64,000 bases of DNA from Phorcus lineatus (lineage: Eukaryota; Mollusca; Gastropoda; Trochida; Trochidae). Each line of letters opens with the position of its first letter. Position 1 is the stretch's first letter. Below the pieces are notes generated by a model that searched no databases, was not told where the DNA came from, and saw only the letters and a program-made list of their open reading frames with translations. Below are positions 19,103-51,381 of the stretch, in pieces. The position numbers were made by a program, and so were the translations under genes. Location: the NCBI GenBank assembly GCA_921293015.1, contig OV121094.1, positions 35,462,054 to 35,526,053 of the forward strand, in the 5' to 3' direction.

Positions 19103-19198
19103 CTCTGAGCAAGATTTATGCGTCTTTTGAGGGGCTCGCCGGTCAAATCGACGTAGCAGTTTCGCCATAAAGGGCGGGTAACTCAAGTACAGATTTTC
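19103..19198 (-). CDS. Candidate host gene, exon 3: basic segment with dibasic sites
   Basis: Minus strand. Acceptor GGACTCTTTATCAG, 96 nt (32 codons, phase 0 to 0), donor TCAGAG/GTAATT. Reads ENLYLSYPPFMAKLLRRFDR then RAPQKTHKSCSE. Two Arg-Arg pairs flank FD, as prohormone cleavage sites might. The exon is much more GC-rich than its surroundings. Joining to exon 2 is in phase, but the 20-kb distance means other exons could lie between. No later exon or stop was found. Resemblance of the combined peptide to the neuropeptide F/Y family (E-x-Y-x-D-P-x-E then a C-terminal RRF) is faint and not claimed. Confidence 0.5.
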
Positions 19199-19910
19199 CT
19201 GATAAAGAGTCCAAGGGAGGATAAAGTGAAGATACAGCCCTGACTACAAAGGATACTTACTATAGTATATACAGTAGTCACATTGCCCATAAGAATAGCA
19301 TAAAATAGCTCTTTTATTTTTCAGATGTTAACTAATACAACACAGATAAAGGTACATATAGGCTTTCTCTTAATGAGGTTTAAAGTATATATGAAAGAAC
19401 ATCCTTTATCAAACGGCTGAGACTCGCGCCATAATGTAGTGGATAGAGTCAATAAAATTTACTCTGGACGTCGTTTTATGGATTTTATCACCTGTGTTCT
19501 AAAGCAGTCACCTTTCTCAGACAGCGTAAGTAGTCTGCAAGGGAATTAAACGACCAATTTATTTCAGTTGCAAGAATATTGCATCTTTTGTGAGGAGAAA
19601 TAAAGGATAGAATTCTCACTCTTAATTCCAAATATCGCGCAGTGAAATTACCTTGCCTCATCAGTTCAGTTTAGCCATAGATTGTTCGAAGTGTGTGTGT
19701 GTGTTTTGTCAGATGCCGATGACCATAGCGGGAACATTCGATTCTGTTAATTTCGTGCACAATATAGTATGATGTTACCAATATAAAGGGAGTGAGCATG
19801 TGTACGTGTGTAAACGTGGCAAAGTCTGACCAGACGGTCATGGAAAGAAATTCCTGACCTGACCTTAAAGCCCATACAATCTCAAATGGGTGCATATGTA
19901 AAACAGTTGA
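19199..19910. other. Intergenic, no gene recognised
   Basis: No supported ORF or repeat family; contains a short (GT)n tract at about 19691-19704. Confidence 0.5.
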
Positions 19911-20531
19911 CATCTTGCTAAATCAGCGTATATGAATCCGCTCCCGCTCTTTCCTAATGCATTGATCTCTTTCAAGGGGGGCGGGATAGCGCAGTGGTAA
20001 GCGCGTTCGGCTTCGGATCAGGGGGTCCGTGGTTCGAATCCCGCCAGGGGCTCGGCAACTTTGTCTGCAGTAGAGAACTGTTCTACACGCAGTCAGGTTT
20101 GGGTGCAATGCTACACTGGAATTCAGTGCAGTACCACCCATGGTTCGCTAGTTCCAGCCGATGCTCGCAGGTTTCACCGCAATGTATAGCCACAATGGTG
20201 TTGCGGGCTTTCTCCCTGCAATAATACTAGCAGCGCGATATAAGTGAAATAATCTTGAAAGCGGCGTTAAACAACAACTCACCTTACTCACCTCTTTCAA
20301 GCCTAAAGCCTCCTATAGCTGGCGGCTCGATATTCCTGGCTATACTCACCTGTATTCTGTCTGCCAATTAAATGTCGTTAATTAAGGAGCTTGAAGCTAC
20401 TATCTTTAACTCAACGGATTTTTCTATCCGGGTTGTGCCGCTGTTGCTGAATGCGAGTCGTCTCATTGGCTGGTAAGATAGCTAGTGATACGAGGGTTTT
20501 GGCTTGAAAGAGATCAGGGTATTAGGAAGCA
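19911..20531. mobile_element. MITE family 1 copy split by a SINE
   Basis: Left terminal repeat CATCTTGCTAAATCAGCGTA at 19911, then GATCTCTTTCAAG, where a SINE is inserted (19977-20291), then the MITE resumes at 20292 with CTCTTTCAAGCCTAAAGCC and continues through CCGGGTTGTGCCGCTGTTGC to AGATCAGGGTATTAGGAAGC. The right terminal repeat is shortened. Confidence 0.82.
19977..20291 (+). mobile_element. tRNA-derived SINE (family 1) with 10-bp target duplication
   Basis: Complete copy with A box, B box (GGTTCGAATCC) and CTTCGGATCAG as in tRNA-Arg(TCG), ending GCGGCGTTAAACAACAACTC and CACCTTACTCAC. Flanked by CTCTTTCAAG at 19967-19976 and 20292-20301, so insertion into the MITE is directly shown. 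Confidence 0.93.
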
Positions 20532-23500
20532 GTACAAAAAAATTTAAGATTCTAAAAATTACGTCACATGGATAGCCCTCGTGTAGAGAGGTGTTCTCTA
20601 CGTTGTGAATATATATTTTTTTACAAACTAATACATTATGTCTCTGAATGATACATTTAAAAAAAAAATATTTTCATTATTTCTTCTTATTTATGATATT
20701 ATTTTTCAAAAGAAACTTTTATTTCCACTTGGTGAATTGAATGAAAATGTACTAACTTGTCAAAATCGGATTTTCTTGTCAATTATCAATTTAGAACAAA
20801 TTGTTTTCACCATTTTGTTATTAAATGTTGTACCAGAAAAAAGTAAGCTGCATGAAAAGGAGTTCGTTCCAGCAAGCAAGCACTTGTTTTTAACGATATT
20901 CATTAAAATGTGGGGAAATCTTCATAATTCGCAGCTAAAGAAATTTCTCAATAGAACAATGCAATTTACTTCCGTGCTGAAAATTACGTCATTATCATAT
21001 TAACACCAAAGTTGAGGAAATCTATTCATCTTTCTGTGTTCCATTTATGAGTACATAATATCACCTATATCCAGTATTTGAACTTCCATCTTTCATTGTA
21101 ATCGCCAAGTAAGTTGGATCATAAAGTCTCAACTACCTCGTTATAACGCGCAGTTAGTCACGCCGATGAGAGAGTTCTTCAAATTAAAATACTGAGAAAT
21201 AATGTTCTTGTAGAAATTCCATTTAAAACCAAAATTAGAATATATTGTTGAACCTCATTGTTGAAGGATATGTATATCCTATCTTCAAAACTTGTGAAAT
21301 ACAATCTAACATCAGCTACGGAACACATCGGGGACAGTGTCAATAAAGTCACATGATGTCAGAGCCGACCATCACACCACTTTTTAGTATTGTTTTGTCA
21401 TTTTCGCAGTAATTTCGGATAATTGAGCTCAAATAAAACCTAGTTTGATGTTTGAATTTTATTTCTTTCTAATTCTTCACGGATGTATAACGCGTCTTAT
21501 TCACATAATATAAACAAATTGTTTGAGATGGTCCCCTTTACATACAGTGTCACTGTGTGCCTTCCATTTCCAATCCCCATTTTAAATTGACATCTGGGAT
21601 TTGTTAGAAAAAGGACAAATAGTCAGTGAAATATTCGAAAAATTCGAAACTTAATAAATAAAAAATTGAACTGATAATATTTTCATGTGAATGCCAATTG
21701 AATAGTGATTAAGAACATGTTAACTTTTTTACGATTTACGAAACTTCGTCACACTCGTTTTTCAAATGTATTTCAAAAGGACAAATAACAATGACGTGTC
21801 AATAATCAGTAACATTGGGCTGGTCGTCCAATTGATATGTTTGTGTCTCAATACTGCCTGTTACATTTTCAAAAGTTATGTCCCCCATCTTCTATGTATG
21901 CCGTCACAATCTATCTATTTTTTGTAAGTCCCGTAAAAGGCTGTCTCATCCAGCAGCCAAAAACCTGCGCACTTCAAACATAATGTTTTGTTTTTATTAG
22001 AGGACCCTTCGAAAAAAATGATGGTGGTTTATGTTTTTTAAAGTATTGTCTTCAAAAATAAACTACTTCATATCGGAAAACACGATGAAGTTACTTGTCG
22101 TTTTAGATAGCAGAGAAGGAAGCCGTCGAGTAGTAGCTGAAGGTGATGTACATGTACATAATTCGGTCGGTTTCTTCCTCTTAAATAATCTAACATAGAA
22201 TCTTTCAGCCTAATCGACCTTATACTCATGCATTCCCTCTCCTCTAGATACCATCAACTTTATGATTTTTTGCTGCCAACCTGATAAGAAGGTAGCAAAT
22301 TACAATTATCTCACTCTTTTCACATGAATTCAAAGCTCTGAAAAAGTAGTGGCAACATATTGTGCATAGAACTATGTTAAACTCGCTCCTTATGACAACA
22401 AACTGGCTCATTTTATATTGTTATATTATTTTGTCTTGCGAATGTACTTAAATTTCTCCTGTTCTGTAAAACTGTTGAAATTGCTTTCTGCCAGACATAC
22501 TAAACTCTTCTCTTCCTTGGCAGAATACTTTTTCCTTTTCCATCATATAAGTTCTGTAAATGAAGTAGTGTATCGACTTAACAGCTTTGGGTGGTCACTA
22601 AGTCATTTTATTAATTGCTTAATCATAAATGAGTGCTGAATCCTGTTTCAGAAAGTTGCAAGAGACAGGACACAGCTGTAGATTTGGTACTTCCTTATCG
22701 AATTATCTACTACATACATTTGCAGTTATCGGCTTTGATTTCAAGGTTGACTTTTCTCGTGTACAAGCCATTTTGATTTTGTCACAGTGTGGTCATGCTA
22801 GATTAATAAAATCATCATAGCATAAACTTTCAAATATTTCCAAGTTAACGTTAAACACAATGTAAGACAAATTTAATGAAATAGGTGGAAGTGTCATAGC
22901 TTGTCTATATTTTATGACGGTATGAATCGTGCTATAATCATAAATTTAATTCTATTTCCCTCTAACTGAGAGTATTCTTTGTTTCTGACTTTTACCCTTG
23001 CGAGTGACATGAATTAAAGTAAAATAAGCTCTGGCAAATTTCTTTAATGACTATACAAATCATATCTGAAAGGGGCTATTGATAATTTATTTGACTACAC
23101 CAATGGGGAAATAGACGCATTCCCAATTAGATACATGGTTATGGATTCCAGGAAATGATGTAAACAACACAAGCAAAGAACACGTTTGACACTCATGATG
23201 TTCATATGCTTGTTGTATATACTTTTTAATCCATTACTCATTGGATGAGATTGTATTTGCTCCTTTAGAGACACTGTTGCTGTTTTTACTATCCCTACAA
23301 AGAATGAATAATATTGGTGCCATACCTGAATCATCAGTTTTGCTAGTTACAACACATTGCAACTCATTGCTTCCTTATATAGTTCCCTTAGTTAATGTTC
23401 ATTTGAAATTAATCATAAAATAAATAATAAAATTTCAACATAAATCACAACTTATATCTAAAACAAGGGTAAAAGTTGTTTTAATCTCTCTTCATAGATA

Positions 23501-24600
23501 ATCATACGTTAATTAAAATTCATGAAGAAAAAACATTATCTTTACTTATTCTTAGATTTTACTCCAAGAGTGATAACTGTTAAATCATGTCTGAAGCTTC
23601 TGGAATGATTCTAAGAATGGATATTCGTCATCGGTTTTTATGTCTAAGATAAAAGTTGCAATGAAAAGTCACAGTATGGAATTAAATGCTTAGAGACGGA
23701 ATAGAATACGTGTTGTTTAACGAGTTGTTTTCAACATCTCATGGCGTGTCTTTCAACCCTTAGGCATATGAACCATAACATCCATTTGGATGAAAAATAT
23801 CTACTATCCGAACTTTTACGAGTTTTAGTGTATTGCTTCATTTTCTATTTAATACTACTTTCGGAACTTCATTTTACAAACCGTTTTTTAATTATGAAAT
23901 AATTAGCTTTTGTATATTTTCTATTTTAGTAATGCATTTTGTTCGTGTTTAATAATGATTTGTGAGAAAATATGTAATGCACCTTTTCTTGTCATAAGTA
24001 AGTAGGTACACATAAACTTGAAACATGCAGTCATAAGCGTGTAAATTCAGATTCTCTTAAATGTGATCATCCAATATTTATCCACTGAAAATCACAATAT
24101 GATATCAATTCATTCTTTATAGATGAATATTAGATCGATTTAGTTTATCAATAACAATATATATATTTCATTTAAGTTTAATTTTTTTCTTGGGTTAAAA
24201 ATTTCCGACAAATTTCATGTTTGAAGAGTAACAATAAAAAAAACTTGCTGGTAGCTCCAATGTCGAAAGCTTAAGGTCGTTGAAGTAGGAATCAGATGGT
24301 TCAAACTTAAGTCCAAGAAGCTTTATTTTACAGTGTTGTGGTGCCTTTAACTGTGATCGTTTAATTCATATTTATAATTGTTTATAAAGTCACAAATGAC
24401 ATATACATATATATGATACTGACTAGTTTTCAATGAAAATTGAAACATTAAGCTTTATGGCAGAAGTTGATATCAAATTTACACAAATGCTACTTCTTCA
24501 AACTATGAAGCATTTTCAACAACAAAATAATCCTCTATCTGTTTTCGATTAGTTTCCAAAATTACGTTTGACAAGCGTAATTGACCAGTTTTCGGCCATA
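20532..24600. other. Long AT-rich stretch without recognised genes
   Basis: Several ORFs of 60-121 codons (the longest 20638-21003) have AT-driven composition and no recognisable motif. No repeat family was recognised. Confidence 0.5.
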
Positions 24601-24617
24601 GTCGTGACCATATTGTC

Positions 24618-24652
24618 ACTTAATCAATAAAATAATATTTTATTGATTAAGT
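24618..24652. repeat. 35-bp near-perfect palindrome
   Basis: ACTTAATCAATAAAATA, a one-base centre, then the exact complement TATTTTATTGATTAAGT. It can form a 17-bp hairpin or cruciform. No element boundary is visible nearby. Confidence 0.85.
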
Positions 24653-25636
24653 TTTGCATTTATGAACCCATTAATTAACAATGTGCCTCTATGTGAGATG
24701 TGTATTGTAATGAATATTATTGTAGCCAGGTACAGTCAAAGATGCTTGAGAACATAAAGGGCGGACAGCACTCAATCACTGCATTGGAATTTCATTAGTT
24801 AATAATAAAGATAAATTAATTATCTCTACATTTACAGTATATAACATTTTCACCGAAAGAAAAAACTACTTAGCATATTATCGAAAACTTTTCATATGTA
24901 AGATGTTAAAATCTAATACTTATAGTAATTGTTTAATGTAAATGTTATAAATGTAAGACATACATTAGAAATATTTATGCATTTGAACATTTGATTATGT
25001 CCATGGTGTTATATTACTTGCTTGATAACGACGTTGGTATCTACACTGAACGTCGCAATCCTGCAATAAAGAAGTTGTAAATCCATAGAACTTGTTCTCT
25101 GTTCATCTCACCAACTTCTAAATGCCTCTCAAAATATGGTGTTATATTAGTTTGGAAATGTCGTCATTTCTTGTTTCATAGACGATGAATAAATTCAAGA
25201 ATTTATTAGACTGATATTCATTAAGTTAATTAAGTAATTGATTTCTTAAATCCTTTTTATGTCATGAGTATTAGTATATTTCTATCTCTTCCAACATTAA
25301 AAACATATTTAGACTAATAATCGTTCATAAAAGATCCATTTATTAATTGATTTAGAATTGACTACAATGGCTTTGTAAATATTCCAGTGTTAAATGTGAT
25401 TCAAGACAAAATATATTTTATGTTGTATCTGGTAAAAACAAAATCCAATATTTTCGGACTGCTGTGTAAGTAGTGAGTAAAGGAATGGTACATATGTATG
25501 ATGACAAAGACAACTAATAAAAGCAATTGAGAATGAGGCATGATTTACATAGTGTTACGCTGGAAGCACACAGCTGGCCAAATATTACTATTATACCCTT
25601 TAAAGATTATTGTTGGTTCTCCAAGACCTCGCCACA
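24653..25636. other. AT-rich intergenic
   Basis: No supported gene or repeat seen. Confidence 0.5.
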
Positions 25637-25916
25637 TGACCGTATAGTAGCGTGGTGGTTTGGTTGCTTCAGTTACACTTAGGGCTATGCCCGCCAGAGC
25701 TTACATGCTTCAAGTAGATTTCACTCAAACTGGACAAGTCGAAATATAGAAGTCAAATTTGAGTAATTCTAAAACTGCTGTATCTCTCATTCAGCGTTTG
25801 TTCCTTCTGTTTCCTCAACTTATTGACCCGTCTTCTCCCTGTTCTGTCCGCTCTCTTTTGAATGATTTTCATCCACATACACAAAAACTGAGGTATTTGT
25901 GTAAGCAAGTTCATCC
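25637..25916 (+). mobile_element. SINE family 2, diverged copy
   Basis: Blocks GCGTGGTGGTTTGGTTGCTT, GGGCTATGCC, AAACTGGACAAGTCGA, GTCAAATTTGAGT and CTCTTTTGAATGA match the 12600 copy in order. The tail (AGCAAGTTCATCCCAATTAC) is a decayed version of the GTTAAACCCCAACTCAC tail. Confidence 0.65.
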
Positions 25917-26129
25917 CAATTACCCACTCTACTAATCAACAACCTATGGAAACATCGCAGGTAAAACGCGTTTTTCAGTAAAATAAAAATCTGTGGATCC
26001 AATTCACCCCCATTTCACATTAAGAATCAACTCCAAATCACAGCTCACCTTTAAAACTTGTTGCGGCATGACTAGTAGTCGTCCCTATTTCATTTGATTC
26101 CAATAAGGTGATATCAGCTGATTGGTTTG

Positions 26130-26910
26130 GTATTCGATGATGGACATGCATCTAAAGTTTGCCTGTTGGCGGGTTCATAGTTACTGTGGGAAGATCGTAT
26201 CCAGAAATTCTTAAAAGACTAATCCATCATGTCATGTGTATCCTTGCCTAATGGTAGGTTTTTTAAATTAGTGTATTCCTCGATATGAATACGAGACCAA
26301 TGTTGATGGAGAAAGTTTACACCCATGAAAATCGCACGCTCCTGCTTTTCTGGCAGTGCAATTTATCATTAAGCTCTTTATCAATAGAAAATGTGGACTT
26401 ATTCATGACAAAAAGCATACATCGACATTTTAGATCATAGTTGATGTGAGGATCAGAACCTTATCATTAAGTGTAATATCATAATACTGAAAAAAAAGTT
26501 ATATATTTCTATGAAATTCTAGGAAGTGCTCATTTTACAATGCGCTATTAATGGAATATTACTTAGAATACCGAGAATACTGTTCTTTTAACAATACTTG
26601 AGGTTAGTAAAAAAATACTATTAATACACTAATGTGTCATTATATCAGTTTAAGGACCGATTACACAAACACAGGCCCCAGGGGCGAGCACCGACACCGA
26701 TTTCCCCACTCAACCTTTTTTTTTTAAAAACGTTTTAAAATGTAATAAACAAGGCAAGGTCTCTTCCAAATTATAAAAACTACTTGGTTCAAAGGTGTTA
26801 CATTAGCTGATGTGTCGAGTGGTGATCGATGTCATGCAAACTGAAACTGCCTGTGGGTGTAAACATAGAGATTACTGTGGGAAGATCACATTCAGTGGTT
26901 GAAATAGAAG
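26130..26910. repeat. Pair of old ~90-bp repeats
   Basis: About 26130-26215 and 26812-26905 share GATGATGGACATGCA/GATCGATGTCATGCA, CTGCCTGT, ACTGTGGGAAGATC and the spacing between them. Diverged; family unknown. Confidence 0.45.
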
Positions 26911-27436
26911 GACTCCTTTCACTGGCATCATTCCTCCCGGGTATTCTTTGAAAAAGTGAAAAACATTTGATCTTCACCGCTAAAATCCCCGTTGCTTCAG
27001 AATATTTACTTTCTAGACAATTACATATGTTTGCAAATAGTTTGATCCAACGTAGATTCATAGATATACATTGTTAATAAATCATATTTAAGAAATGTTA
27101 AATTTATTTTGGAATAGGAAAATGTTTAAATGTGTAGTCTTTCTGAATAGAAGATATTTTGTCAATGAGACAACGAATTAAATAACACACACAATAATAC
27201 AGTTTAACCGATTCTTACCTGAATTCCGTTGACCATATTTTTATTGAAATTATTAGTTTAAATCGTTTTTTGTATTATTGGTAATATCTGATATTAGTAA
27301 GAACATTTTTGAGACAGAAATGGAATTTCATTTTTTCTGTATCCTTTAATTATGTGAACTTTAAAGGGTCCTATGGTAGGACAACTTTCTTAATATGCCA
27401 TTCCAAGTTACATTGTTGTTTAAAGTACTCATTTAG

Positions 27437-29850
27437 TTAGGTCTTCAAGACATAGTCTGGAAGACCTATTGTTATTATCCGAGTTATTATTATTTGTACT
27501 TTTTGTGTGAATCGGATTCAGCCAAAACGGCTGCTTCAAATTCGACAAAATTTGGTACGCTGATAGCCCTTACTGAGGAATAGTCGTGCGAAGCTTTTGG
27601 GCTTAATCGGATTATGCGTTAAAGGCACAGTACCACTCAAAGTTTCAAAAATTAACATTGGAAAAATTTTCAAAATGCACTTAGAGACTTGCAACTTGTT
27701 TTAAACGATAGGCAATTACATTTGGAGCAAAAAAGTAAATCATGGCAATTTCGTAGCGTTACTACTTTCGCCGCCATATTTCTTTTTTTGACTTTTTTAA
27801 ATTTCCGGACCCCATGCATCTTTGACAATCTTCTTCTCTGAAGATACATGCAATTAAAAGCTGAAACTCACATATATCATAGCTGAAGGAGTGGGGAGAA
27901 AAGTAATAGAGCAACATTTGCAAATTTGTTAATACTTTTTTTTCTGCAACCCTTCAAAATCGGGCGACTTAGCTCCTGTGACCATGTTCAAGGGGCGATA
28001 ACTCAAAAACTTAGACTCACAATTGCACCATTTTTTCAGGAATGTAAGAACAGTATGTGGACTTCAAGAAACTGTTAAAACATTGATCGCGAACATGGTC
28101 AAGTTTGTCACAATTAAGGCTCAAAATCGGGAAAAATAATTTCAACAAATTTAACATGGTGTAATTTTTCAAAATGCCCCTAGAGACTTGAAACTTGATT
28201 TCAATGATACGTCATAACAGTACCAACAAAAAAGTCAATCATGACGATTTCATAAGTATTATAGTTTTTTCGCATTTTCAACTTATTTGTTCCAGAAATA
28301 GGTTTTCATTATTCCACGATTCTTGTGAACGCGATTCAACCAAAACCACTAAAGCGATTGCAGCCAACCTTTCAGGTCTGATAGAGCGTTATGAGAAGAA
28401 GCCACAATAAGCTTTGGGGCTTAATCGGATTAAGCGTTAAAGGCACAGTAGGATCCAAATTTCGAAAAATTAACATGGGAAAATTTTTCAAAATGCACAT
28501 AGAGACTTGAAATTAAATTGAAACGATAGGCAATTACATTTGGAGCAAAAAAGTAAACCATGGCGAATTCCTAGCATGAATAGTTTGGCCGCCATATTGC
28601 GTTTTTGGGATTTTTGCAATTTTCTGACCCCACGCATCTTCGAGAATCTGCTTCTCTGAAGATACTTGCATCGAAGAGCTGAAAATCTCCAATAATGTAG
28701 CTTAGGCATTGGGAATTTCAGGGTGATTCTAAGTTTTATGAAAGTCGAATACGTCTTTAAGAATCAAGAATAAAATCGATCGCGAACAGTCATTTCAGTT
28801 CACAAGAGAGAGTCAAATTTTGCATCATACTATATGTCAATTAAGTGCGTTAGCAAGGGTTAAATCGCAAACAGTTGAAGGAAAACGTGATGAAATGCAG
28901 ATATGCACCCCCCATTTGCCCTCCCCCCTGTTTAAAGGCAAATCTGAACGTGCGCAGAACTCTACATTGCTCTTGTAGTAAGATTCGTCAAGTGCGTTAG
29001 CAAGGGTTAGATTGCATAAAATTGGAGGAAAACATCAATATTGAAGACGGTCAAGACGTGTGACATGTCCAAACCAGGTACATGCGCCCTTGTATGTGTG
29101 AAAGGGCAAAAGTTGACAGAAATACTCTACATTGCTCTTGTATCAAGATTTTCTAAATGCGTTAGAAAGGGGTAATTTGAAAAGTTGAAGGAAAACACCC
29201 TTCCTGTCAAGGTATGCGGACATGGGACAAAGTCTGAGAGAAATACTCTCCGATGTCTCATAAAGAAGCACGTAATCGACAGTCTACAGAAGGACAAAAT
29301 AGCTCTTTGAAGCAGAAGTCCGTACGACTGCACGTATGGTCGACGTGTGCGAGAGGAGTAAATACACACAAGTGCGTCAAGCACTGTCAAATTCTGACTA
29401 GGCAGGCAGGGAAACGAGCAAATAAGCTTCCGTGCCTTGCCTGGCCTGACCGATTGACATAGTCTTGATTATTTATATATAACAAGACCCTCAACCTATG
29501 TACCAGCATTCGGCAACTATATTCCGGTGTCGGCAAACCACTTGATCTCGCTAAAGGAAAACACTAGCCCTTTTTCAACTTTCAAACCTCTACTGCCTCC
29601 CCTCCGGATACCCCTTACATTTTGATCTTGTTGCTTTCTTGCCTCAACTGCCAGCAGGCCATGTACATTGAGTAAACCTCACTTCCGCTCATATGTCTCG
29701 CTACGTACTGAAAACGTATACAAAACAAAGATTTGGTCACATAGGCAAGTTACTGTTTACCACTAAGACAAAAAAAAACATGTGAAGGTCAAACACCGTG
29801 TGAAGGTCAAACACTATGCGAAGGTCAAAGAGGAAGTCTTGAAGACCTAA
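27437..29850. mobile_element. 2.4-kb composite repeat with 15-bp terminal inverted repeat
   Basis: TTAGGTCTTCAAGAC at 27437-27451 and its exact complement at 29836-29850 bracket the region. Inside, a ~400-bp block is repeated at about 27500-27890 and 28300-28720 (GGCTTAATCGGATTA, GCGTTAAAGGCACAGTA, CGATAGGCAATTACATTTGG, CCGCCATATT), with a partial third at about 28140. Three units near 28845, 28990 and 29155 share TGCGTTAGCAAGGGTTA and GGAAAAC. No transposase ORF is seen. Confidence 0.6.
29779..29832. repeat. 18-bp tandem repeat, three copies
   Basis: TGTGAAGGTCAAACACCG repeated three times with small changes, just inside the right end of the composite repeat. Confidence 0.8.
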
Positions 29851-31973: not shown

Positions 31974-31985
31974 TCAACAACAGGA

Positions 31986-32423
31986 GGTGAGGTGAGGTGA
32001 GTTGGGGTTTAACGCCGCTTTCAAGAGTAGTTCACTTATATCGCGGCTGCTAGTATTATTGCAAGGGGAAAGCCCGCAACACCATTGAGAAAACTTGCAA
32101 AAGACATATCTACATATGATTGTTATTAAATGAGTGAAGTTTCTTTTCATACCAAGGACTGAAATTTTAACAGAAGAAACGAGAAAATTTAATTACATTT
32201 TGCAATTTAGGGATTGAGGTGAGGTGAGGTGATATATGGTTTAACGCCGCTTTCAATAGTATTTCACTTATTACGCGGATGCTAGTATTATTGCAGGGCG
32301 AAAGCCCGTAACACCATTGTGGCTAGACATTGCGGTGAAACCTGCAAGCATCGGCTGGAGCCCCTGGCGGGATTCGAATCACGGACCTCTTGATCTCGAA
32401 GACGAACGCGCTATCTCGCCCCC
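31986..32423 (-). mobile_element. Composite SINE with internal second tail (possible 3' transduction)
   Basis: Minus strand. Head near 32423 with the tRNA-like part (CGCTATCTCGCCCCC on plus; GATTCGAATCACGG is the B-box region), shortened body, tail at about 32214-32240 ((TCACC)n), then about 110 bp of unrelated DNA, then the 3' third of another SINE with its own GCGGCGTTAAACC and (TCACC)n tail at 31986. A 12-bp duplication TCAACAACAGGA flanks the whole at 31974-31985 and 32424-32435. Confidence 0.8.
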
Positions 32424-32435
32424 TCAACAACAGGA

Positions 32436-33295: not shown

Positions 33296-33874
33296 TCATA
33301 AAGGGGAGCCGCACAGGGCTCTCGGGTTAGAATAGGGCCTCGGTATCTCCATGCCTGTCGTATAAGGCGACTAAAATGGGGCGGTCTGTTTGCCGTGGAC
33401 TGCGACCTGTGTTGATGGAGAAAGGGATTCTGGTGGTTGAGGTTGGTGTATGCCTGGGGGTGTGCCCTCCAACACATCACTTTGACCCTAACTTCTTCTA
33501 GACAGGTGGTCAGATGGGCCCGATCTGATCAATCGGCTGGTCATGCCGAGCCCTTGGTGTTATTTTCTTCAAATTGTTTCCTATTCTTCAAATTTAGCTT
33601 CTCAATCAATTCTTCTCCTCTTTTTCAAACCCATTTATTCTTATCTCCTTCCTATCTTTTCTTCAAAAACAAATTTCAGCGCAATTTTCCCTTACTACAC
33701 CAAGTAGGCGGTGGCCAATGGGTCAATCCAGTAAAGCATTGGCAACGCTTGTATTGGAGTATGCCAGTGCTGTAGCCCTGGTGTTGGTTTGTGGAGGCCC
33801 CCAGACATTAAGCATCCCCTTTTTTGACTCCGTGGTGGGTGGGGAGCAGCACTGGCGAGACACCTGAAACCAAT

Positions 33875-35177
33875 ATGACGACCCAAAAAAAGCGGAAAAC
33901 TGAGGCATATCAACATTCCTCATCTTCGGATGAGGAAACATGTTTCAAGTCATGGCCAAGCTTCGTTGTGATGGAGGGAGGCAGCAATGGTGGTCAGCCA
34001 CTAAAGCTCAATCCCTTTGCCATCGAAAAAGGAATCAAAGGAGTTGCTGGTACAGTAAAAAACATCACTAAACTTCGCACTGGCTCACTTCTCATCGAGT
34101 GTTCAACTCAACAGCAATCGACCAATCTACTAAAACTTACCACTTTTGCTGGGGTGGCTGTCAAAGTCGCCCCTCACCGTTCACTCAACACCTGCAAGGG
34201 CATTGTTCGAGACAGGGATAGAGTACTATCTGACATGTCCGAGGACGAGCTTGTGGCTGAGCTCAAATCACAAGGCGTAACACATGTGAAGATATTCACA
34301 TTCAAGGATAAGGAAAAGAACAAGACCTTTCCATCAAATACATATTTGGTGGAATTTGCTACATCGTCACTTCCTCCTAACATCAAGGCAGGGTATCTTC
34401 TCATCAAGGTGGAATTATACATTCCAAACCCACTTCGGTGCTTCAAGTGCCAAAAGTTTGGACATGGTTCCAACTCTTGCCGTCTGCTAGAAATGTGGCA
34501 AGGGGGACCATGATAGTTCCACCTGTGAAGCTCCTCACATGTGTCCTAATTGCAAAGGGCCCCACATGGCGTCCTCTAAACAATGCCCTACTTTCATCAA
34601 GGAAAGTAAAATAATCAAATTCAAACCTGAAAACAATGTTTCATTTGCTGAGGCCAGGAAACAGGTCTCCGCAAATGATAAAGCTTCCTATGCTGCTGCA
34701 GCAGCTTCAACATCAACATCTTCAACACCTGTTCATAAGGTGTCCATTGCAATCCAGTCAGACTACACCTGGCTTGACAGACCACAAGCAGTTAAATATA
34801 AACCCCAACTGGATAAACCCAAAACAACTCAAACTCAAACTTACAATAACATTTCCATCACTCACTCAGATAAAAAATCAATCTATGATCCTAACAAACC
34901 AACAACTCCTTTACCTAAAAAAACTCCACATTCACCATCTTCTTCTCAATCGAAGCGTTCCAAAAAACGGCAATTGAAAAAGCCCCAATCCTCTGACAGG
35001 GTCACAAAAGCTGACAAGGACCCTGTCAGTGTTGCAAACAGGTTCCAGGACCTTGACTTGGATGTGGACATGGATGATTCCCTTTGTCCATCCAGGTCCA
35101 CAAGACGCTCTCCATCGCGGCAAAGGGCATCCTCAGAGGATCCTGGGGGGCAAAGGCTCTCAAGGCTCCTAGAATAA
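33875..35177 (+). pseudogene. LINE ORF1, gag-like RNA-binding protein, frameshifted
   Basis: The protein would coat LINE RNA. I chose the ATG at 33875 (MTTQKKRKTEAYQH); an in-frame ATG at 33824 would add 17 residues. An RRM-like region (about 33980-34430) precedes CFKCQKFGHGSNSC (about 34438-34480), then a frame break near 34490, a second knuckle remnant ending GDHDSSTC, and CPNCKGPHMASSKQC (34542-34586). The C-terminal third is Ser/Pro/Lys-rich with a basic RSKKRQLKK stretch. Stop TAA at 35175. ORF2 begins 7 bp downstream. The single frame break sits between the first and second knuckles. Confidence 0.88.
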
Positions 35178-35184
35178 TTTTAAA

Positions 35185-38100
35185 ATGTATATTTTCCCTC
35201 CGTTTTTATTAATTATGGCAATTCTTCAGTGGAATTCTCGTGGTTTTAAAGCCAACTTTAATGAGCTTGCTTTACTGGCTCAAACATATAATCTACAGGC
35301 AATATGTCTGCAGGAAACCCATTTTAAACAATCAGATAACACCACCATGCGTGGTTTCACTTTGTATAATGCCTTTTCACCAGACTTGGAAAGAGCCAAG
35401 GGGGGTGCATCAATTCTTGTTAGACAAGGAGTGATTCACAGTCAAATTCCCCTTAAAACTAAACTTCAAGCTGTAGCTGTACAGCTTAGCTTATTTAAAA
35501 CAATAACATTATCTTATATTTATGTTCCACCTTCAGATAAACTTATACTTCAAGATCTTGTTCAGCAACTCCCTAAACCTTTTCTTATTCTTGGGGACTT
35601 TAACAGCCATAATCCCTTGTGGGGAAGTAATTCTACCAATGACAAGGGTAAAAAGTTAGAAGATTTTCTTGGCAATAATGGTCTTTCATTATTTAATGAT
35701 GGGACCAATACGTATTTACATCCTGCTTCAGGAACATATTCTGCAATTGACTTATCTATAACTGACCCATCATTTCTTAATGACTTTATTTGGTCAGTCC
35801 ATGAGGATATGTGTGGCAGTGATCACTTTCCAATAGTATTGGAAGCTGCCCTATCTTCTCCTGAAGAACACAATCCTCATTGGAAGTTTTCCAAAGCAGA
35901 TTGGGACACTTTCTTCCCTCTGCATGGAAAACATAAAATATGAATCAATATTACAATCTGAAGACCCTAGCCAAACATTTTTAGATACATTAATCGAAAT
36001 TGCTGAGGAAACCATTCCTAAAGCAACCTCTAATTCACGTATTGTTAAACCATGGTTTAATGATACATGCAGACAAGACATTCGAGCACGTAAAAAGGCT
36101 GAACGAATGTTCAACAAACATCCTACCCCAGGCAATCTTGATGGCTGTCGCAAAGCTCGGGCTAAGGCTCGCCGCACTGTCAATCAAGAAAAACGCAAAT
36201 TTTGGAGAGGCTATGTCTCTAAAATTAATTCCAGAACGCCTATGAGCAAAGTCTGGAATATGATTAGTAAAATTAAAGGCAAAGGTTCCAAATCATCAAT
36301 AAAGCATCTTAAGGTTAAAGGTGACCTTCTTACATCTAAAACTGATATTGCAAATAAGTTGGCTGAAACAATCTCCAAAAACTCTTCATCAGCAAATTAT
36401 GTACCTGAATTCCAAAAATATCAAAAAGGTACAGGAAAAACAACCACTTAATTTTAATTCTGATAATGGAGAAGATTATAATGAACACTTCTCCCTTTCA
36501 GAACTTAAAACAGCACTTTCTAAAGCACATGATACTGCAACTGGCCCTGATGATATCCATTATCAGCTTTTAAAACATCTACCAGAATCTTGCCTTAAAG
36601 TTTTACTCGAGGTATACATGTATAATCATATATGGGAATCTGGTGATTTTCCACCTTGTTGGCATAATGCCACCATAGTCCCCATTCCTAAACCCGGGAA
36701 GGATCACACAGATCCTTCTAACTATCGCCCGATAGCCTTAACAAGTTGTGTTTGTAAAACTATGGAACGGATTATCAAAGATCGTCTGGTTTGGTACTTG
36801 GAAACCAACAAATTACTAACAGATATCCAATGTGGCTTCCGTAAACAACGTAGTACCACTGATCATCTTGTTCGTTTAGAATCTTTTATTAGAGATGCAT
36901 TTATCAACAAACAACATGCCGTGTCTATCTTTTTTGATTTAGAAAAAGCATACGACACGACTTGGAATCATGGCATCTTAAAGGATCTATTTAATTTTGG
37001 TATGCGAGGTCGTATGCCAGAATTTATGTCCAACTTTTTACATGATCGCCAATTTAAAGTCCGGGTGGGTTTTACCCTATCTGATTTCTTTAATCAGGAA
37101 ATGGGTGTTCCACAAGGAAGCATTTTATCGGTCACATTATTTAGCATTAAAATAAATAGTTTGGCCAAAGTTTTAAATGATCATACTGATGGTTCTCTTT
37201 TTGTTGACGACTTTGGAGTCTCTTGTCGAAGCAAGAATATGCCCTCAATTGAGCGGCAGTTGCAGCTTTGTTTAAATAAAATTCATAAATGGTCGTTAGA
37301 AAACGGCTTTAAATTTTCAAAAGCTAAAACATCTTGTGTGCATTTCTGCAGTATGCGCAAAATGCACAAAGATCCGGAGCTTTTTCTGAATAAGACTCCA
37401 ATCAAAGTCGTGCCTGAGGCCAAATTTCTTGGTCTAACTTTTGACAGTAAACTATCCTTCATTCCACATATTAAAAACCTTAAAGCTAAATGTCTAAAGG
37501 CATTAGATCTTTTGAAGGTCGTGTCAAATGCTAAATGGGGTGGAGATGAAGAAACTCTTCATCATCTCTATCGATCACTTATCCGCTCTAAACTTGATTA
37601 TGGATCCATTATTTATGGATCCGCCCGCCACTCGTACATCAAAATGCTAGATACAATCCACCACCAGGGTCTCAGACTTTGTCTTGGGGCCTTCAGAACA
37701 TCTCCTGTTGAAAGCCTTTACGTCGAGGCTGATGAGCCATCCCTTGGAGATCGATGAGTCATCCCTTGGAGATCGGCTCATCAAGTTAGCACTTCAATAT
37801 ATAACTAAACGCAAATCCAATCTTTCAAATCCAGCTTACAACTGCATATTTAATCCTGGATACCATCAGTTGTATACTTCAAACCCAAAGCAATTCAACC
37901 TCTCGGTATCCGTATTCAACAACATGTTGAAAATTCGGATATCGACCTCACAACTATAGCAGAACATGGTTTGCTGGCCACTCCACCTTGGCAGTTGGTC
38001 AAGCCCCGTGTTGATCTCAGCTTAACCACAAATAAAAAATCAGAAACCAATCAGTTAATATTTCTACAGGCTTTCAATGAACTCCGTGATTTTTATTCTG

Positions 38101-38900
38101 ATTACAAACCAATTTATACTGATGGTTCTAAGGATGGCGGAACAGTTGCAGCAGCAACGGTTACACCTTCAACAACTTATGCTTCAAGGCTGCATGATGG
38201 CAGCAGCATTTTCACAGCTGAAGCAAAGGCCATTCTCAAGGCCATTCGGCATATCAAAAACTCTACTGCTAATAATTACATTATCTTTTCTGACTCTCTA
38301 TCATGCCTTCAGGCTATCAAAAACTGCAAAAGTGATTACCCCATTATTAGGGAAATTTTAACCATTCACAATACATTTCTCGAATGCGACATCGTCTTTT
38401 GCTGGCTTCCTAGCCATATGGGAATAAGAGGCAACAATAAAGCTGACTCAGCAGCTAAGTCAGCTCTTAACTTCAAACATGTCTCACAAACGAAAGTTCC
38501 ATATACAGATTCCAAACCTGCAATAAGAACTTATATAAAACAGCGTTGGCGGTCCCAATGGGACCGACAACAACACAATAAACTTCATGTAATACAACCT
38601 TATTTAGGTTATAAATCTTTATGTTCTTTTACCCGTCAGGAAGCGTGTGTCTTGCGACGATGTCGCATTGGACACACCTATGTCACTCATTCATAACTTT
38701 TAAAGGGGGAAGACCCCCCTGTGTGTATTCCATGTCAGTGTCCCCTCACAGTTAAGCACATCCTGTGCGAGTGCTGGGACACTGCACAAGTAAGGGAAAC
38801 ATTTTATCCAAATGTTTCAATTTCACAACTTTTTAATCAATTCGGTGAACACCGTATTTTATCCTATCTAAAGGAAATCAATCTATTTGATAAGTTGTAG
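35185..38900 (+). pseudogene. LINE ORF2: endonuclease, reverse transcriptase, RNase H; multiple frameshifts
   Basis: Start is 35185, or 35215 (MAILQWNSRG, the usual EN beginning). EN: LQWNSRG, CLQETHF, LGDFNSHNPLWGS, DLSITDP and CGSDHFPIV (to about 35840). RT: NYRPIALTS (36720), FFDLEKAYDTTW (36930), GVPQGSILS (37104) and FVDDFG (37200). RNase H: YTDGSK (38117), FTAEAKAI (38212), FSDSLS (38287) and SHMGIRGNNKAD (38411). A C-terminal C-x2-C...H...C (VCIPC...TVKHILCEC, 38720-38780) precedes TAG at 38898. Frame changes fall near 35935, 36410, 37745, 37900 and 38697. The one at 37745 is caused by a 22-bp tandem duplication (GATGAGCCATCCCTTGGAG...). Dead copy but nearly full length. Confidence 0.92.
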
Positions 38901-39088
38901 AATTTTAAACTTTCTATATCAGCTTTTAACCAACTTTGTGATATTGTGCTGATGTTTTTACAGCCTTCGTGCTGTATCACGTTTTTGCTTTTGCAATCTA
39001 TTTCATTTCATTAAATCTCACGCCGCTAATGGCTGTAATATTGCCCAAGCGGCGTTAAACAATAACTCACTCACTCACTCATAAAGGG

Positions 39089-39486
39089 ATGGCCGATTCT
39101 AAAGAAGACTGATCTTGGTTAGAAGAAATGTTGAAAGAAAAGAATGGTGGCATGGAATATTAATGTCTTAAACAAATCTTATAGATTGTAAATTGAACGA
39201 CCTAAAATATTTTTACATTTTCAAAATGACAGTTCTCGACAAAAAAGGTTATGGTTTATTGTAACACCAGTTGTATGATGTTTGTACTTCAAAATCAGGT
39301 CAATGTATTTCATTTCACATTAAAAACTAGGAAAGTAATACATCGAAATAAAACAGTAGAGCAGCTGGAAACTAAAACAATAAACATGCAGAGAACAGAT
39401 AATGCTTAACGTTGATTTAATTTAAAAGATATTTGAGTTTGATAGGAAAAAAAATGTTTTTGGAATTATATATACACAAGACTTAC
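39089..39486. other. Intronic or intergenic, no feature recognised
   Basis: AT-rich sequence between the LINE target duplication and the candidate host exon 2. Confidence 0.5.
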
Positions 39487-39569
39487 CAATTTAATCAGTG
39501 TTGATATCTCCTCTGAGGGATCGGTGTATACTTCTCGATCTTCCTCTGTAAGTTGAGGCTTTGCTGTAC
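39487..39569 (-). CDS. Candidate host gene, exon 2: acidic segment
   Basis: Minus strand. Acceptor CCCTATTGTCCCAG, 83 nt open, donor AAATTG/GTAAGT. Reads (G)TAKPQLTEEDREVYTDP followed by SEEISTLIKL, ending in phase 0. The other two frames contain stops. Amino-acid composition is polar and protein-like, unlike the AT-rich background. It lies about 400 bp to the right of a LINE insertion. The upstream intron (39570-43798) contains two MITE copies, a poly-C tract and a second MITE family. Confidence 0.55.
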
Positions 39570-39658
39570 CTGGGACAATAGGGCTTCATTCTATCCTGAA
39601 ACAATATATTTTCTCATCAATGTTGTGTTTCTGTGTTGTTGACAGCCTGATATTCTTC

Positions 39659-39692
39659 TCCCCCTCCCCCCCCCCCCCCCCCCCCCCCCCCC
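39659..39692. repeat. Poly-C tract
   Basis: CCCCCTCCCC followed by an uninterrupted run of more than 20 C, then an A-rich stretch. A glycine-rich 64-codon ORF on the minus strand is an artefact of this tract. Confidence 0.95.
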
Positions 39693-41358
39693 AAAAATAA
39701 ATAAGATAAAAACGAATATTTTTTTTTTTGTGGGATATTACGTGAACTCAATTCGTACCAATGGTGTATTCTCTTCATGTAGATGCTAAGCACATCTCTA
39801 GATTTGCACAATTTGTGTAGTTTTTATATGCTCAAAACTGACACAGATGAGCAAGGACACACTTTGTGGTTTAATCAGCTTTATAATGTACGTATATGTA
39901 TTCGGAAAATGCCTGCTTATTGATATCAACACTTTTAGTGGTCTTAGGGTGAGATAAGGAGTATCATTCATAATTTAAGTTTAGGAAAAGAATCGGTTAT
40001 AAACTTGATGATTGGTGCAGCTTCATGAACTGCAGGTCAGACTTTTTCATGTTCTAAAAGGTTCCGTCACCTTCGTTAATGCAACGGTTTTAAAAAATAA
40101 TAAAAAAATGTAGACCTACATGCTACCCTTTGAGACGATGAGTTTATCACGTTTCAGTTTGGACGCTACTTGAATATTACCATGATTTAGCAATATTAAC
40201 TTTATAATCAATCTGATATATTATATACAACAGAAAATATTATTTTAAAACAGGGCCTTTTTAACATCTAGCGTATGAATATAAAGCCTTATAAATCCCC
40301 AAAAACTTTCCTTTGTGAACCAAAATTGAACACAGGTCATGCCTCATAATGTGCAACTAGCAAAGTTAAAGCAATTTCTGGAATATGTAGAAAGACCTTA
40401 TGTTAGTTCATCTGCAGGTCAAGCGCTATTTAACAGAATCAAATCACTTCAGTCAACAGCTACTCCTCTTCCTCTCTGTCATAAGACAGAATACAAGCCT
40501 GCAAGGTTAATTATCCTTTAGCATCAATTTTTCATCCTTATTCTGATATACAAACCCAGCTCTAACTTCAGTTTACAGTGTACAGAACTTATATATTGAG
40601 AAACAAGAGTGGTGCCATGTGCTTTTGATAATGTAAGAACAAATTTAAACTGTCAGTTAACCAATACCAAAACAATAACGTGAATCTGATATCCTACAAC
40701 CAAGTATGCCAAAATGCAAGTATTACTCTTGACATTAGATGGCATATGTTAAATTGGTTGATTAGTATCATAAAACTTTTGATGTAGATTTAAACTTCAA
40801 ATACTGAATAATGAAATTTCAAATCCCATGGTCATATTCAAAGATAGTGAATTATCATATCAAATTTATTCAATCAATTTATTTACTTTTATTGCATAGT
40901 AGTATATAGACATAACTACCAAAATTTAAAAGCATGAAAATGGAGGTGACATGTCATAAACTGTATTAGGGACTGAAGGCTTATGTATGTTATGTCTGGT
41001 CGCTTTCTCACATTTACCTGACACATTGGCTGACTAATGTGTCAAGATGTTTGTAGATTTTGCGGGAAATATCTATTCAGTAAATGGATTGGAAGCCAAT
41101 TTTGTATGACAAATAATTTTTACAGATTAGCAAACTCTATAACCCTTAGAAATAACACACGGAAAACATCTTATTAGTATTTAAAATAAATTTAAATGTT
41201 GTATTTGTTTTCAAAAATAAATGTCAAAGAGAGGGAAAACTTCATTAAATGGCGAATAAAATTGTTGATGTGTAAAGGTAATGGGCGATTTAACTTTGGA
41301 TTGATATTTTAAAGCTATTCCTATGCTGTATCAGACCTATGAAAATACTAAATTAGGT
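39693..41358. other. AT-rich, no gene recognised
   Basis: A 60-codon ORF at 40339-40521 has protein-like composition but no recognised motif or splice context. Otherwise nothing supported. Confidence 0.45.
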
Positions 41359-41649
41359 CATTCTGCTGCATCAGCGTAATTGAATCCCCTGTTTGAGCTC
41401 CTTCCATATACCCTGATCTCCTTTAGGCCAAAAGCCTCGTATAGCTAGCTATCTAACCAGCCAATGAGACGATTCGCATCCAGCAACAGCGGCACAACCC
41501 GGATGGAAAATTTGGAAAAGTAGCTTCAAGCTCCTTGGATAACTACATTTCAAGCCGCGAAAGCCGTACGGGGCTTTTGGCTCGAAAGTGATCAGGGTAT
41601 ATGGAAGGAGATCGATCAGCGGATTCAAATACGCGGTTAAAGCAGGATG
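41359..41649. mobile_element. MITE family 1 copy
   Basis: Terminal repeats CATTCTGCTGCATCAGCGTA and TACGCGGTTAAAGCAGGATG; core GCCAATGAGACGATTCGCAT and GCGGCACAACCCGGATGGAA, reverse orientation to the 14413 copy. Slightly shortened in the middle. Confidence 0.85.
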
Positions 41650-42106
41650 AAATTAGGATGGATGAGTATTGAACTGCAATGTAACAATTAGTACATGGAC
41701 GTCCTGCCAAAGTTGGATGCAAACTAATCAACATCTATATAGTTAAATCATTTCCAAATAATAACGTGATTGGATCACCCATTATATATCTGCGAAACAT
41801 ACAGTGTGGCATGTTAAATTCTTGTTAGCGTGTCATCTTTCTCTTTATCGATTCCTTGGCATAACATGAATCTATTATACCCTATGCTTATCTGCACAGT
41901 ATCAAAAGGAACTAACTAATTGCTGATGTTCATGCTGAACTGGTGTAAATTACCTTTATTCTCATAATCACATCCATAACTTATTTTAAATTCATTGTCA
42001 TTTCATTTATACATAGAAAACGTGAAATTGGATTAAAGTTGTCCAATCTTTCATATGGTATCATCGCCAGGGTTGTTAGTAAATGTTATTGGGGAACAAG
42101 ACCATA

Positions 42107-42436
42107 CATCCTGCTTCATCAGCGTACTTGAATCCGCTGATCAAGCTCCTTCCATATACCCTGCAACCTTTAGGCCAAAAGCCTCGTATCGCTAGCTATC
42201 TAACTAGCCAATGAGACGACTCGCATCCAGCAACATCGGCACAACCAGGATGGAAAATTCAAAAGAGTAGCTTCAAGCTCCCAGGATAACGACATTTCAT
42301 TGGCTTAAAAACCACAGGTGAGCACAGCCACGTACACCAAGCCGAGCCAGATGTACGAGGGATTTGGCTCGAAAGAGATCAGGGTATATTGAAGGAGCTC
42401 GATTAGCGGATTCAAATACGCTGATGCAGCAGGATG
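42107..42436. mobile_element. MITE family 1, best-preserved copy
   Basis: CATCCTGCTTCATCAGCGTA at the left and TACGCTGATGCAGCAGGATG at the right; the inverted repeat continues inward for at least 60 bp (GAATCCGCTGATCAAGCTCC / GGAGCTCGATTAGCGGATTC). The central part is the conserved CCAGCAACATCGGCACAACC segment. About 330 bp, no ORF. Confidence 0.9.
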
Positions 42437-42770
42437 AAGACGATACTGTGAAAACAAGGTCAATGATATTTACATTTTAGGACAACATTCTTCTCTGTTA
42501 AAATCTTTATTCGATTAAGTGATCATATATAACAGTAAGGGTTATTATTTTTTTTATAAAGAATTATTGTTGGATGCATAAGACCGTGCTATGTGATAAT
42601 GATTTATTGATATAATTCTATATTTAATCATCTATAGTCTTTATGACGGATTAAAACTATGCAATTTGCGGAGTCCGATGATAAATCAATGATCTTTCTT
42701 CAAAGGTTGCTTTATTAAAAACATGAACTTAGGCGGGTTTTGTAAATAAATTTAATTTATTAATTTCCCT

Positions 42771-43214
42771 CAGTCTGATTAAAATCGACCCTGTTCCGAG
42801 GAATAAAAGTTTCAAAATATTGACACTATCGAGATTCGAACTCTATCTGTCCAGGCCATCCTCTCCACTAGGTCTGACCGCACCCTACTGTAGCGCACGT
42901 TCTTGCGTAAACTAAGCTAACCAATCACAATGCGTGCGGCAAAAGCATTCGGTATCAGTAGCTAGGGGCAAGTAACTCCCATTTACCATTCGTTAACCTT
43001 GATCGCCGCTATCTTTATTTTAAACGCCATGATGTGATTGGTTCGCTATTGACTAGATTTTGTCTGCGCTAAACTGGTGTCGGCACTTGCGAGCAGTGAG
43101 GCTGCCTTCAGACCTAGTGGAGAGGAAAGCCTAGACAGATAGAGTTCGAATCTCGAAAGAGTCAATATTTTGAAACTTTTATTCCTCGGAACAGGGTCGA
43201 TTTTAATCAGACTG
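42771..43214. mobile_element. MITE family 2 with ~110-bp inverted repeats and 10-bp target duplication
   Basis: CAGTCTGATTAAAATCGACC begins at 42771 and its complement ends at 43214. The arms match for about 110 bp, including ACAGGGTCGATTTTAATCAG and GTTCGAATCTCGA. TAATTTCCCT at 42761-42770 and 43215-43224 is the target duplication. A 9-10 bp duplication with long arms fits Mutator-like MITEs. No ORF inside. Confidence 0.9.
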
Positions 43215-43225
43215 TAATTTCCCTC

Positions 43226-43253
43226 TACACTACACTACACTATACTACACAAG
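43226..43253. repeat. (CTACA)n microsatellite
   Basis: CTACACTACACTACACTATA and CTACAC, directly after the MITE target duplication. Confidence 0.85.
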
Positions 43254-43798
43254 TTGCCTCATTTTTAAACATCGTTGTGTTGTAACAAGGATATTGTAGC
43301 AGATTAAGAAGAAAAAAGACTATGTTAATGGAGTGCATCATAATAATCATAATTATGGAAATAAGTTTTTCTTTCTTAAATGTTTATCCTGAAAACAACT
43401 TCCGAAAAATATGGAAAGGGATAAATATTAACTGAAATATGAGCTAAAATAATATTATCCCGTCAATAAGTATTGTTTTCAGAAAAGAGCAAACAGGCGA
43501 GGCTCTTAATATTAAACAAGTCATTCTCTAGCCTTTATCAATATGTAAAGGCAAGTGAAAATGACCAATATTTATAAACAAAACAAAGTTCTAAGTATGT
43601 TTTACAAAACCCAATTCAGTCGTCAGATAAACATGTTTTCAAGTTCCTCATGAACTCGTTGACATTCTCCTAAAAGTATGTTCTCTCTGCTACGTACCTT
43701 CCAACAAGATCATAATTATTGAAATCTTTGATAACCATAGCCATCACATTCAAAACAATGACCTTTGGAAAACAGAATTTCAAGAACTTAGTACTTAC
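43254..43798. other. AT-rich, nothing recognised
   Basis: Stretch between the MITE and candidate host exon 1, within the proposed first intron. Confidence 0.5.
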
Positions 43799-43871
43799 CA
43801 AGATGAAGGAAACCTAACAGTAACATTAAAGAAAGGTCAGGGATGATGTAAAGACTTCGTACTCTTCGAAC
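43799..43871 (-). CDS. Candidate host gene, exon 1: leader of a small secreted protein
   Basis: Minus strand. Acceptor GACGTTTCCAG, then 73 nt open in one frame, then CTTG/GTAAGTAC. The frame reads ...SLYIIPDLSLMLLLGFLHL and ends one base into a Gly codon. The internal ATG (43826-43824) would give a short hydrophobic leader; an upstream exon could add more, because the frame is open to the acceptor. The phase-1 end fits the exon at 39569-39487 exactly, giving ...FLHL-G-TAKPQL.... A hydrophobic leader followed by polar acidic sequence suggests secretion. No family is identified. Confidence comes from the splice signals and matching phases across three exons. Confidence 0.5.
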
Positions 43872-44377
43872 CTGGAAACGTCAAACAAGTTTTATCTTTT
43901 GTAATCTTAATAAGCTGGAATAAAGCCATTTAAATACATGTGAGAAAATAAAATGTCCTAGATATCAATAATTGTCCAATGCTATATTGAACGGAAGGTA
44001 GTAAGTATTATTCAAAGACTCTTATGAATCCGGCGGTTATTGATTACAAGAAAAAAACCCATTTATTTCATTTATGACAGAAACGAAGATACGCCAATAT
44101 AAAGATAATATTAGAAACAACCAAAATATATTATTAACAATTTAAGACGTCTAGGAATCAATTAATCTCTGAAATGTTTGTTTCATTGAATACGATTCTG
44201 TTTGACCGGACGGTCCATCAGACCTTCAATATCAGAAGAAAAAAATCCTAAAGTGCAGACTACTAACTTCTTCGAAGTACTATAAAATTGAAATTGTGTA
44301 TGGAAAGGTCATGAAATGACAAGAAATGTATGACACGACACATTCACGTTACAAAACAAGCCATCTAAGGTGATTGT

Positions 44378-51302: not shown

Positions 51303-51381
51303 CTCCGCGTTTGTTTGTAAACAAGTACATATCAATGCAGATATGGGTCGCATTCGTCTACGTTTTCATTGCGAAAGAGAC

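What the first reader, a model, noticed from the sequence alone, without database searches (positions are those of the whole stretch)
19103..43871. Hidden host gene: three in-phase exons of a small secreted protein
Exons at 43871-43799, 39569-39487 and 19198-19103 on the minus strand each have consensus splice borders, open frames and compatible phases (1, then 0). The conceptual product has a hydrophobic leader, an acidic stretch and a basic stretch with Arg-Arg pairs. It would make most of this 'empty' window intron, and may be an undescribed peptide precursor.
Basis: inference. Interest (0 to 1): 0.75.

Follow-up and report, generated by a model that had tools for sequence, protein, structure and literature searches.

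The report
Three splice-like exons, gene unproven
Three short stretches of an animal genome can be strung together on paper into a small secreted protein, but shuffled sequence does as well about one time in six and no relative was found, so the gene is unproven and more likely a chance alignment.

Summary
The sites exist as described. Minus-strand blocks 43871-43799, 39569-39487 and 19198-19103 have AG/GT borders, one open frame each and phases 1 then 0, joining into 84 residues. This is not clearly beyond chance. With looser thresholds, 22 of 150 and 25 of 150 did, and both reversed real sequences scored higher. Exons 2 and 3 look moderately coding (likelihood ratio about 5 on a weak measure); exon 1 does not. 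Exon 2's acceptor has AGs 14, 21 and 26 bases upstream. No start codon is fixed. Exon 3 can read past its weak donor to a TAA at 19090-19088 and may be terminal. No relative was found in Pfam, PDB, viral or prokaryote contigs, or paper text; the sequence collections searched were not mollusc genomes or transcriptomes. Pfam's hits elsewhere are to a retrotransposon, an RT fragment, a zinc-finger ORF and a broken THAP frame. Most likely: chance splice-like sites in repeat-rich non-coding DNA (0.62). A real gene is not excluded.

The parts
43799..43871 (-). Candidate exon 1 (73 nt), frame VRRVRSLYIIPDLSLMLLLGFLHL(G)
   Evidence: Acceptor rank 4 of 3414 AGs, donor rank 32 of 3427 GTs on the minus strand; coding score -3.7, reached by 45% of same-length open frames
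39487..39569 (-). Candidate exon 2 (83 nt), frame TAKPQLTEEDREVYTDPSEEISTLIKL
   Evidence: Donor gtaagt rank 32 of 3427; acceptor rank 105 of 3414 with AGs at -14, -21, -26; coding score reached by 3.5% of same-length open frames
19103..19198 (-). Candidate exon 3 (96 nt), frame ENLYLSYPPFMAKLLRRFDRRAPQKTHKSCSE
   Evidence: Acceptor rank 25 of 3414 with the next AG 41 nt upstream; donor gtaatt rank 65 of 3427; coding score reached by 4.2%, GC by 3.0%, CpG count by 1.6% of comparison stretches
19088..19198 (-). Alternative terminal-exon reading of exon 3: the frame continues VIGF and stops at TAA 19090-19088
   Evidence: AATAAA begins at 18974, but 23% of sampled points have a poly(A) hexamer within 120 nt
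33815..38693 (+). Non-LTR retrotransposon with EN, RT and RNase H ORFs (and a gag-like ORF by eye), inside the proposed second intron in the opposite orientation; not part of the gene model
   Evidence: Pfam Exo_endo_phos_2 7.6e-24, RVT_1 9.6e-35, RNase_H 2.4e-10

Best explanation
The three blocks are most likely splice-like sites that happen to line up in repeat-rich non-coding DNA of an animal genome. The minus strand alone holds 3414 AG and 3427 GT, short frames are often open, and about one in three exon pairs should be in phase, so a reader choosing the best-looking sites can fairly often assemble such a chain. On this reading the blocks are not spliced and make no protein. Shown: the sites exist, and shuffles reach the same total score in 15-17% of trials when thresholds are not tuned to the chain. 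Inferred: absence of transcription, splicing and translation.
For: Shuffled windows reach the chain's score in 22 of 150 and 25 of 150 trials. At least one in-phase three-exon chain above the fixed thresholds occurs in 129 of 400 single-strand shuffles, 14 of them at least as good (repeats not masked). Both reversed real sequences give higher chains at looser thresholds, 50.1 and 32.9 against 30.07. Exon 1's coding score is ordinary and of a level seen in 17.5% of coding but 65.8% of non-coding segments. Exon 2's acceptor has an AG 14 nt upstream, where real acceptors usually have none (recalled). No relative in Pfam or PDB, viral or prokaryote contigs or paper text.
Against: In the first, unmasked count with the stricter donor cut-off the minus strand had 7 candidate exons against 1 on the plus strand, 1 reversed and 0-4 in ten shuffles, although some of these overlap each other or lie in repeats. 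Exons 2 and 3 each have coding scores reached by about 2-4% of open frames, and their exon scores (11.5, 12.0) resemble that of the THAP-bearing ORF 51557-51813 (12.2). The acidity of exon 2 is reached by 1.1% of open frames. Missing homologues carry little weight because no mollusc data were searched.
Confidence: 0.62

Rival explanations
1. Exons 2 and 3 are real exons of an undescribed host gene on the minus strand, with exon 3 perhaps the terminal exon (stop at 19090-19088). Exon 1 may be wrong, and the product need not be secreted; it may be part of a larger intracellular or membrane protein with long, transposon-filled introns.
For: Both frames carry coding signal on a measure with AUC 0.82 and a likelihood ratio of about 5 for a score of 4 or more; exon 3 is GC- and CpG-rich for its surroundings and has a clean acceptor; the 2-to-3 junction is in phase.
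Against: No family hit; exon 2 acceptor poor; a single exon at least as good occurs in 75 of 300 strand-shuffles for exon 2 and 60 of 300 for exon 3. The coding measure is weak: none of 8 segments of the THAP ORF reaches 4.
Confidence: 0.25
2. One reading: a three-exon (or longer) gene for a small secreted peptide precursor. A signal peptide spanning the exon 1/2 junction would be removed, and convertases would cut at the Arg-Arg pairs of exon 3 to free a peptide of about 40 residues.
For: Phases fit. The hydrophobicity of exon 1 is reached by 4.8% of open 24-mers, the net acidity of exon 2 by 1.1% of open 27-mers and two or more dibasic sites by 8.4% of open 32-mers; these features were chosen after the fact.
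Against: No Met within the three exons gives a normal-length signal peptide, and upstream start exons are only candidates; no Gly before either Arg-Arg; only one Cys; no Pfam match; NPY/NPF and NKY features not met; the chain is within shuffle range.
Confidence: 0.12

Closest known systems
Molluscan NPY/NPF precursors
   Same: By eye, a PSE...RRFxRR spacing like PSEF...RPRFGRR (recalled)
   Different: No significant alignment to recalled Lymnaea and Aplysia peptides (370 and 959 of 1000 shuffles score as high); no Gly for amidation; no intron in the Arg codon of the RF/Y motif, which PMC4200219 (passage) reports for the family
Lophotrochozoan NKY precursors
   Same: Long single peptide in a short precursor
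   Different: Lacks the FW[RQ]P[LM]G[YG] and G[YF]WIWMPAQG motifs given for NKY-1 and NKY-2 in PMC6425005 (passage)
Single-copy proneuropeptides in general
   Same: Hydrophobic stretch first, dibasic sites later
   Different: No confirmed signal peptide, no family match, no transcript evidence available

Membership tests
Spliced protein-coding gene | Consensus splice borders, open frames, matching phases | tested here: met
   the exon 2 acceptor and exon 3 donor are weak
Spliced protein-coding gene | Exon chain better than chance | tested here: inconclusive
   7 of 500 with fixed thresholds; 22 of 150 and 25 of 150 with looser ones, where reversed sequence scores higher
Spliced protein-coding gene | Transcript across the junctions | not testable with these tools
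   No RNA-seq among the tools; no whole genome held
Spliced protein-coding gene | Frame conserved in relatives | not testable with these tools
   No animal genome collection among the tools; no relative in PDB, viral or prokaryote contigs
Secreted peptide precursor | N-terminal signal peptide with a start Met | tested here: inconclusive
   The only in-frame Met in exon 1 leaves about 12 residues; 19 start readings lie upstream (nested ATGs counted apart), two exons of them with good donors (54711-54658 and 48476-48453), none singled out. No signal-peptide predictor was available
Secreted peptide precursor | Dibasic cleavage sites | tested here: met
   Two Arg-Arg pairs in exon 3; 8.4% of open 32-mers have two or more dibasic sites (RR, KR, RK or KK)
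NPY/NPF | C-terminal RxRF/Y-amide with Gly, and an intron in its Arg codon | tested here: not met
   RRF is followed by Asp and the nearest junction is at Leu|Glu; intron rule from a passage of PMC4200219
NKY | NKY-1 or NKY-2 core motif | tested here: not met
   Motifs from a passage of PMC6425005 are absent from the product

The most novel reading that the evidence does not exclude
An undescribed, lineage-restricted secreted peptide precursor of a mollusc, coded by at least three tiny exons spread over 25 kb, with a non-LTR retrotransposon in its second intron, ending at TAA 19090-19088 and releasing a roughly 40-residue acidic peptide at the first Arg-Arg.
Probability: 0.1. Interest if true: 0.5.

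Novelty: not a real feature. Interest (0 to 1): 0.2.

Why it matters
If real, it would be a new peptide precursor overlooked because its exons are tiny and its introns long, a known blind spot of gene finders (recalled). If not, it shows how readily a three-exon gene can be read out of repeat-rich non-coding DNA.

Tried and rejected
Homology. The joined product (88 aa with the four-codon read-through) and the three exons apart: 0 Pfam families at E up to 10 for all 4 queries. Joined product against PDB: best E 0.61, leucine-rich repeat proteins, taken as chance. Exon 3 in its full open frame against PDB: best E 1.3; exon 2: none up to E 10. Viral contigs: 12 stretches matched a pattern, 0 confirmed. 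Prokaryote genome contigs: 419 matched, 0 confirmed. Six peptide words in paper full text: 0 papers.

Known peptide families. An NPY/NPF resemblance seen by eye was tested and rejected. NKY was considered from paper passages and rejected. Paper search was seen as a listing (10 papers), of which I saw passages of three (PMC4200219, PMC6425005, PMC8557429). Paper search was seen as a listing only (8 of 22). Paper search 41, on tRNA-derived SINEs in gastropods, returned 0 papers.

Other readings. No Rfam family at gathering score and no tRNA gene. The exons with 30-nt flanks have no second copy in the window beyond matches of 15-17 bases for exon 1 (blastn). Structure prediction was not run: the joined product is not contiguous DNA and had no relatives to align.

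Other host exons. 255 stop-to-stop ORFs of 50 aa or more lie outside the main RT-element cores; the 149 with the highest coding score were printed. Of these I gave 125 to Pfam; of the 24 left out, 3 had been scanned and 21 were not scanned, nor were the 106 unprinted ones, nor shorter frames. Two families came out, each in one member: THAP, and YchF-GTPase_C at E 0.009, which I take as chance among 125 proteins.

Limits. The splice matrices and amino-acid frequencies were recalled generic animal values. 'Shuffles' are random sequences drawn from the dinucleotide steps of each 2-kb block, not exact shuffles. The repeat mask was drawn by hand. The coding measure is weak (AUC 0.82) and was calibrated mostly on transposon ORFs.
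Full report
What is there. Their lengths are 73, 83 and 96 nt. Each is preceded by AG and followed by GT, each has one open frame, and joined they read VRRVRSLYIIPDLSLMLLLGFLHLG-TAKPQLTEEDREVYTDPSEEISTLIKL-ENLYLSYPPFMAKLLRRFDRRAPQKTHKSCSE without a stop. The phases are 1 then 0, as claimed. The first two donors are GTAAGT; the third is GTAATT.

Quality of the sites. With generic animal matrices (recalled, not trained on this species), exon 1 has the 4th best acceptor of 3414 AGs on the strand and a donor ranked 32 of 3427 GTs. Exon 3 has the 25th acceptor and the 65th donor. Exon 2 has a donor ranked 32 but only the 105th acceptor. Exon 2's acceptor also has AGs 14, 21 and 26 bases upstream, where real acceptors usually have none (recalled); for exon 3 the next AG is 41 bases upstream. 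Exon 3 is open past its weak donor for four codons and then meets TAA at 19090-19088, with AATAAA starting at 18974. It could therefore be a terminal exon, though 23% of sampled points on this strand have a poly(A) hexamer within 120 nt, and 77 in-phase terminal exons could also be proposed downstream.

Chance. Those thresholds were fitted to the chain. With two looser settings the figures are 22 of 150 and 25 of 150. The real minus strand then gives 30.1 or 33.2 (the second using exons 2 and 3 with a third block at 4990-5058), the plus strand 25.1 or 32.0, and the two reversed sequences 50.1 and 32.9. Overall the chain is at best marginally unusual.

Coding signal. Exon 1 is ordinary: 45% of same-length open frames score as high, and a score that low is seen in 17.5% of coding against 65.8% of non-coding segments. 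Exons 2 and 3 have scores reached by 3.5% and 4.2% of open frames; exon 3's GC is reached by 3.0% and its CpG count by 1.6% of stretches of its length. Calibrated on reading frames in the window (212 30-codon segments, mostly transposon, against 2366 unmasked open ones), the measure has AUC 0.82 and a score of 4 or more has a likelihood ratio of about 5; none of the 8 THAP segments reaches 4. As exons with their splice sites, exon 2 (11.5) and exon 3 (12.0) score like the THAP-bearing block 51557-51813 (12.2). This is the best evidence that something real may lie in exons 2 and 3.

The protein reading. The hydrophobicity of exon 1 is reached by 4.8% of open 24-mers, the net acidity of exon 2 by 1.1% of open 27-mers, and two or more dibasic sites by 8.4% of open 32-mers. 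All three were chosen after the fact. The only in-frame Met in exon 1 would leave a leader of about 12 residues, short for a signal peptide. Upstream, 19 in-phase start readings exist (nested ATGs counted apart), two exons of them with good donors, 54711-54658 and 48476-48453, but nothing singles one out. Neither Arg-Arg pair follows a Gly, so neither would give an amidated end.

Relatives. There was no Pfam family at E up to 10, no PDB match better than E 0.61, nothing confirmed in viral contigs or prokaryote genomes, and no paper containing any of six of its peptide words. No collection of mollusc genomes or transcriptomes was available, and no whole genome is held for the window, so absence says little. 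A spacing that resembles NPY/NPF was tested: the alignment to two recalled peptides is no better than shuffles (370 and 959 of 1000), the Gly is missing, and the family's intron in the RF/Y arginine codon (PMC4200219, passage) is not at this place. The NKY motifs quoted in PMC6425005 (passage) are absent.

Surroundings. Between exons 2 and 3 lies a plus-strand non-LTR retrotransposon with endonuclease, reverse transcriptase and RNase H. It appears to end in an ACTC run near 39080, about 400 bases from exon 2, so exon 2 does not look like its tail. The exons have no second copy in the window beyond 15-17-base matches for exon 1, though without the rest of the genome a repeat origin is not excluded. 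The rest holds an inverted pair of RT-element ends at 1-3980, 170-base and other tandem arrays, and dispersed repeats. In the 135 ORF queries scanned with Pfam, the credible hits were to transposon domains, zinc fingers and THAP; short exons would escape such a scan.

Verdict. The question is cheap to settle with RNA-seq of the right species.

Noticed in passing
window 51259-51819 (+): A THAP-domain reading frame (MPSSCFAANC... through HFTEDC... to VPTLNK) interrupted by one in-frame stop near 51500: a broken host gene copy or transposon remnant. Pfam THAP 2.7e-06 on the downstream part; one ORF of the set also matches THAP, probably the upstream part (the table does not name it); frames.
   Followed up: partly
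window 33815-38693 (+): Non-LTR retrotransposon whose coding region is split over several overlapping frames (gag-like with CCHC-type stretches by eye, EN, RT, RNase H), with an ACTC run near 39080.
   Followed up: partly
window 1-3980: Two 610-nt arms, 98% complementary, 2760 nt apart (1-610 and 3371-3980), at the ends of RT-element sequence that resembles Penelope-like elements from memory; RVT_1 match 7.3e-06 at 966-2204 (-), below the Pfam cut-off.
   Followed up: no
window 10692-10990, 19975-20287, 32229-32359, 44376-44620, 53592-53857: Dispersed repeat in both orientations. The copies near 20.0 and 44.6 kb, read by eye, have a tRNA-like head (GCGCAGTGGT...; TTCGAATCCCGCC on one strand), like a tRNA-derived SINE; ARAGORN calls no tRNA.
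   Followed up: no
window 11980-12481 and 62188-63470: The same 170-base tandem unit in two arrays 50 kb apart.
   Followed up: no
window 4460-4972 (+): 171-codon ORF with C2H2 zinc fingers (Pfam zf-C2H2 1.1e-07), possibly part of a transposon.
   Followed up: no
window 16066-16398 (-): 111-codon ORF that resembles a mariner-type transposase from memory; no Pfam hit at E up to 0.1.
   Followed up: no
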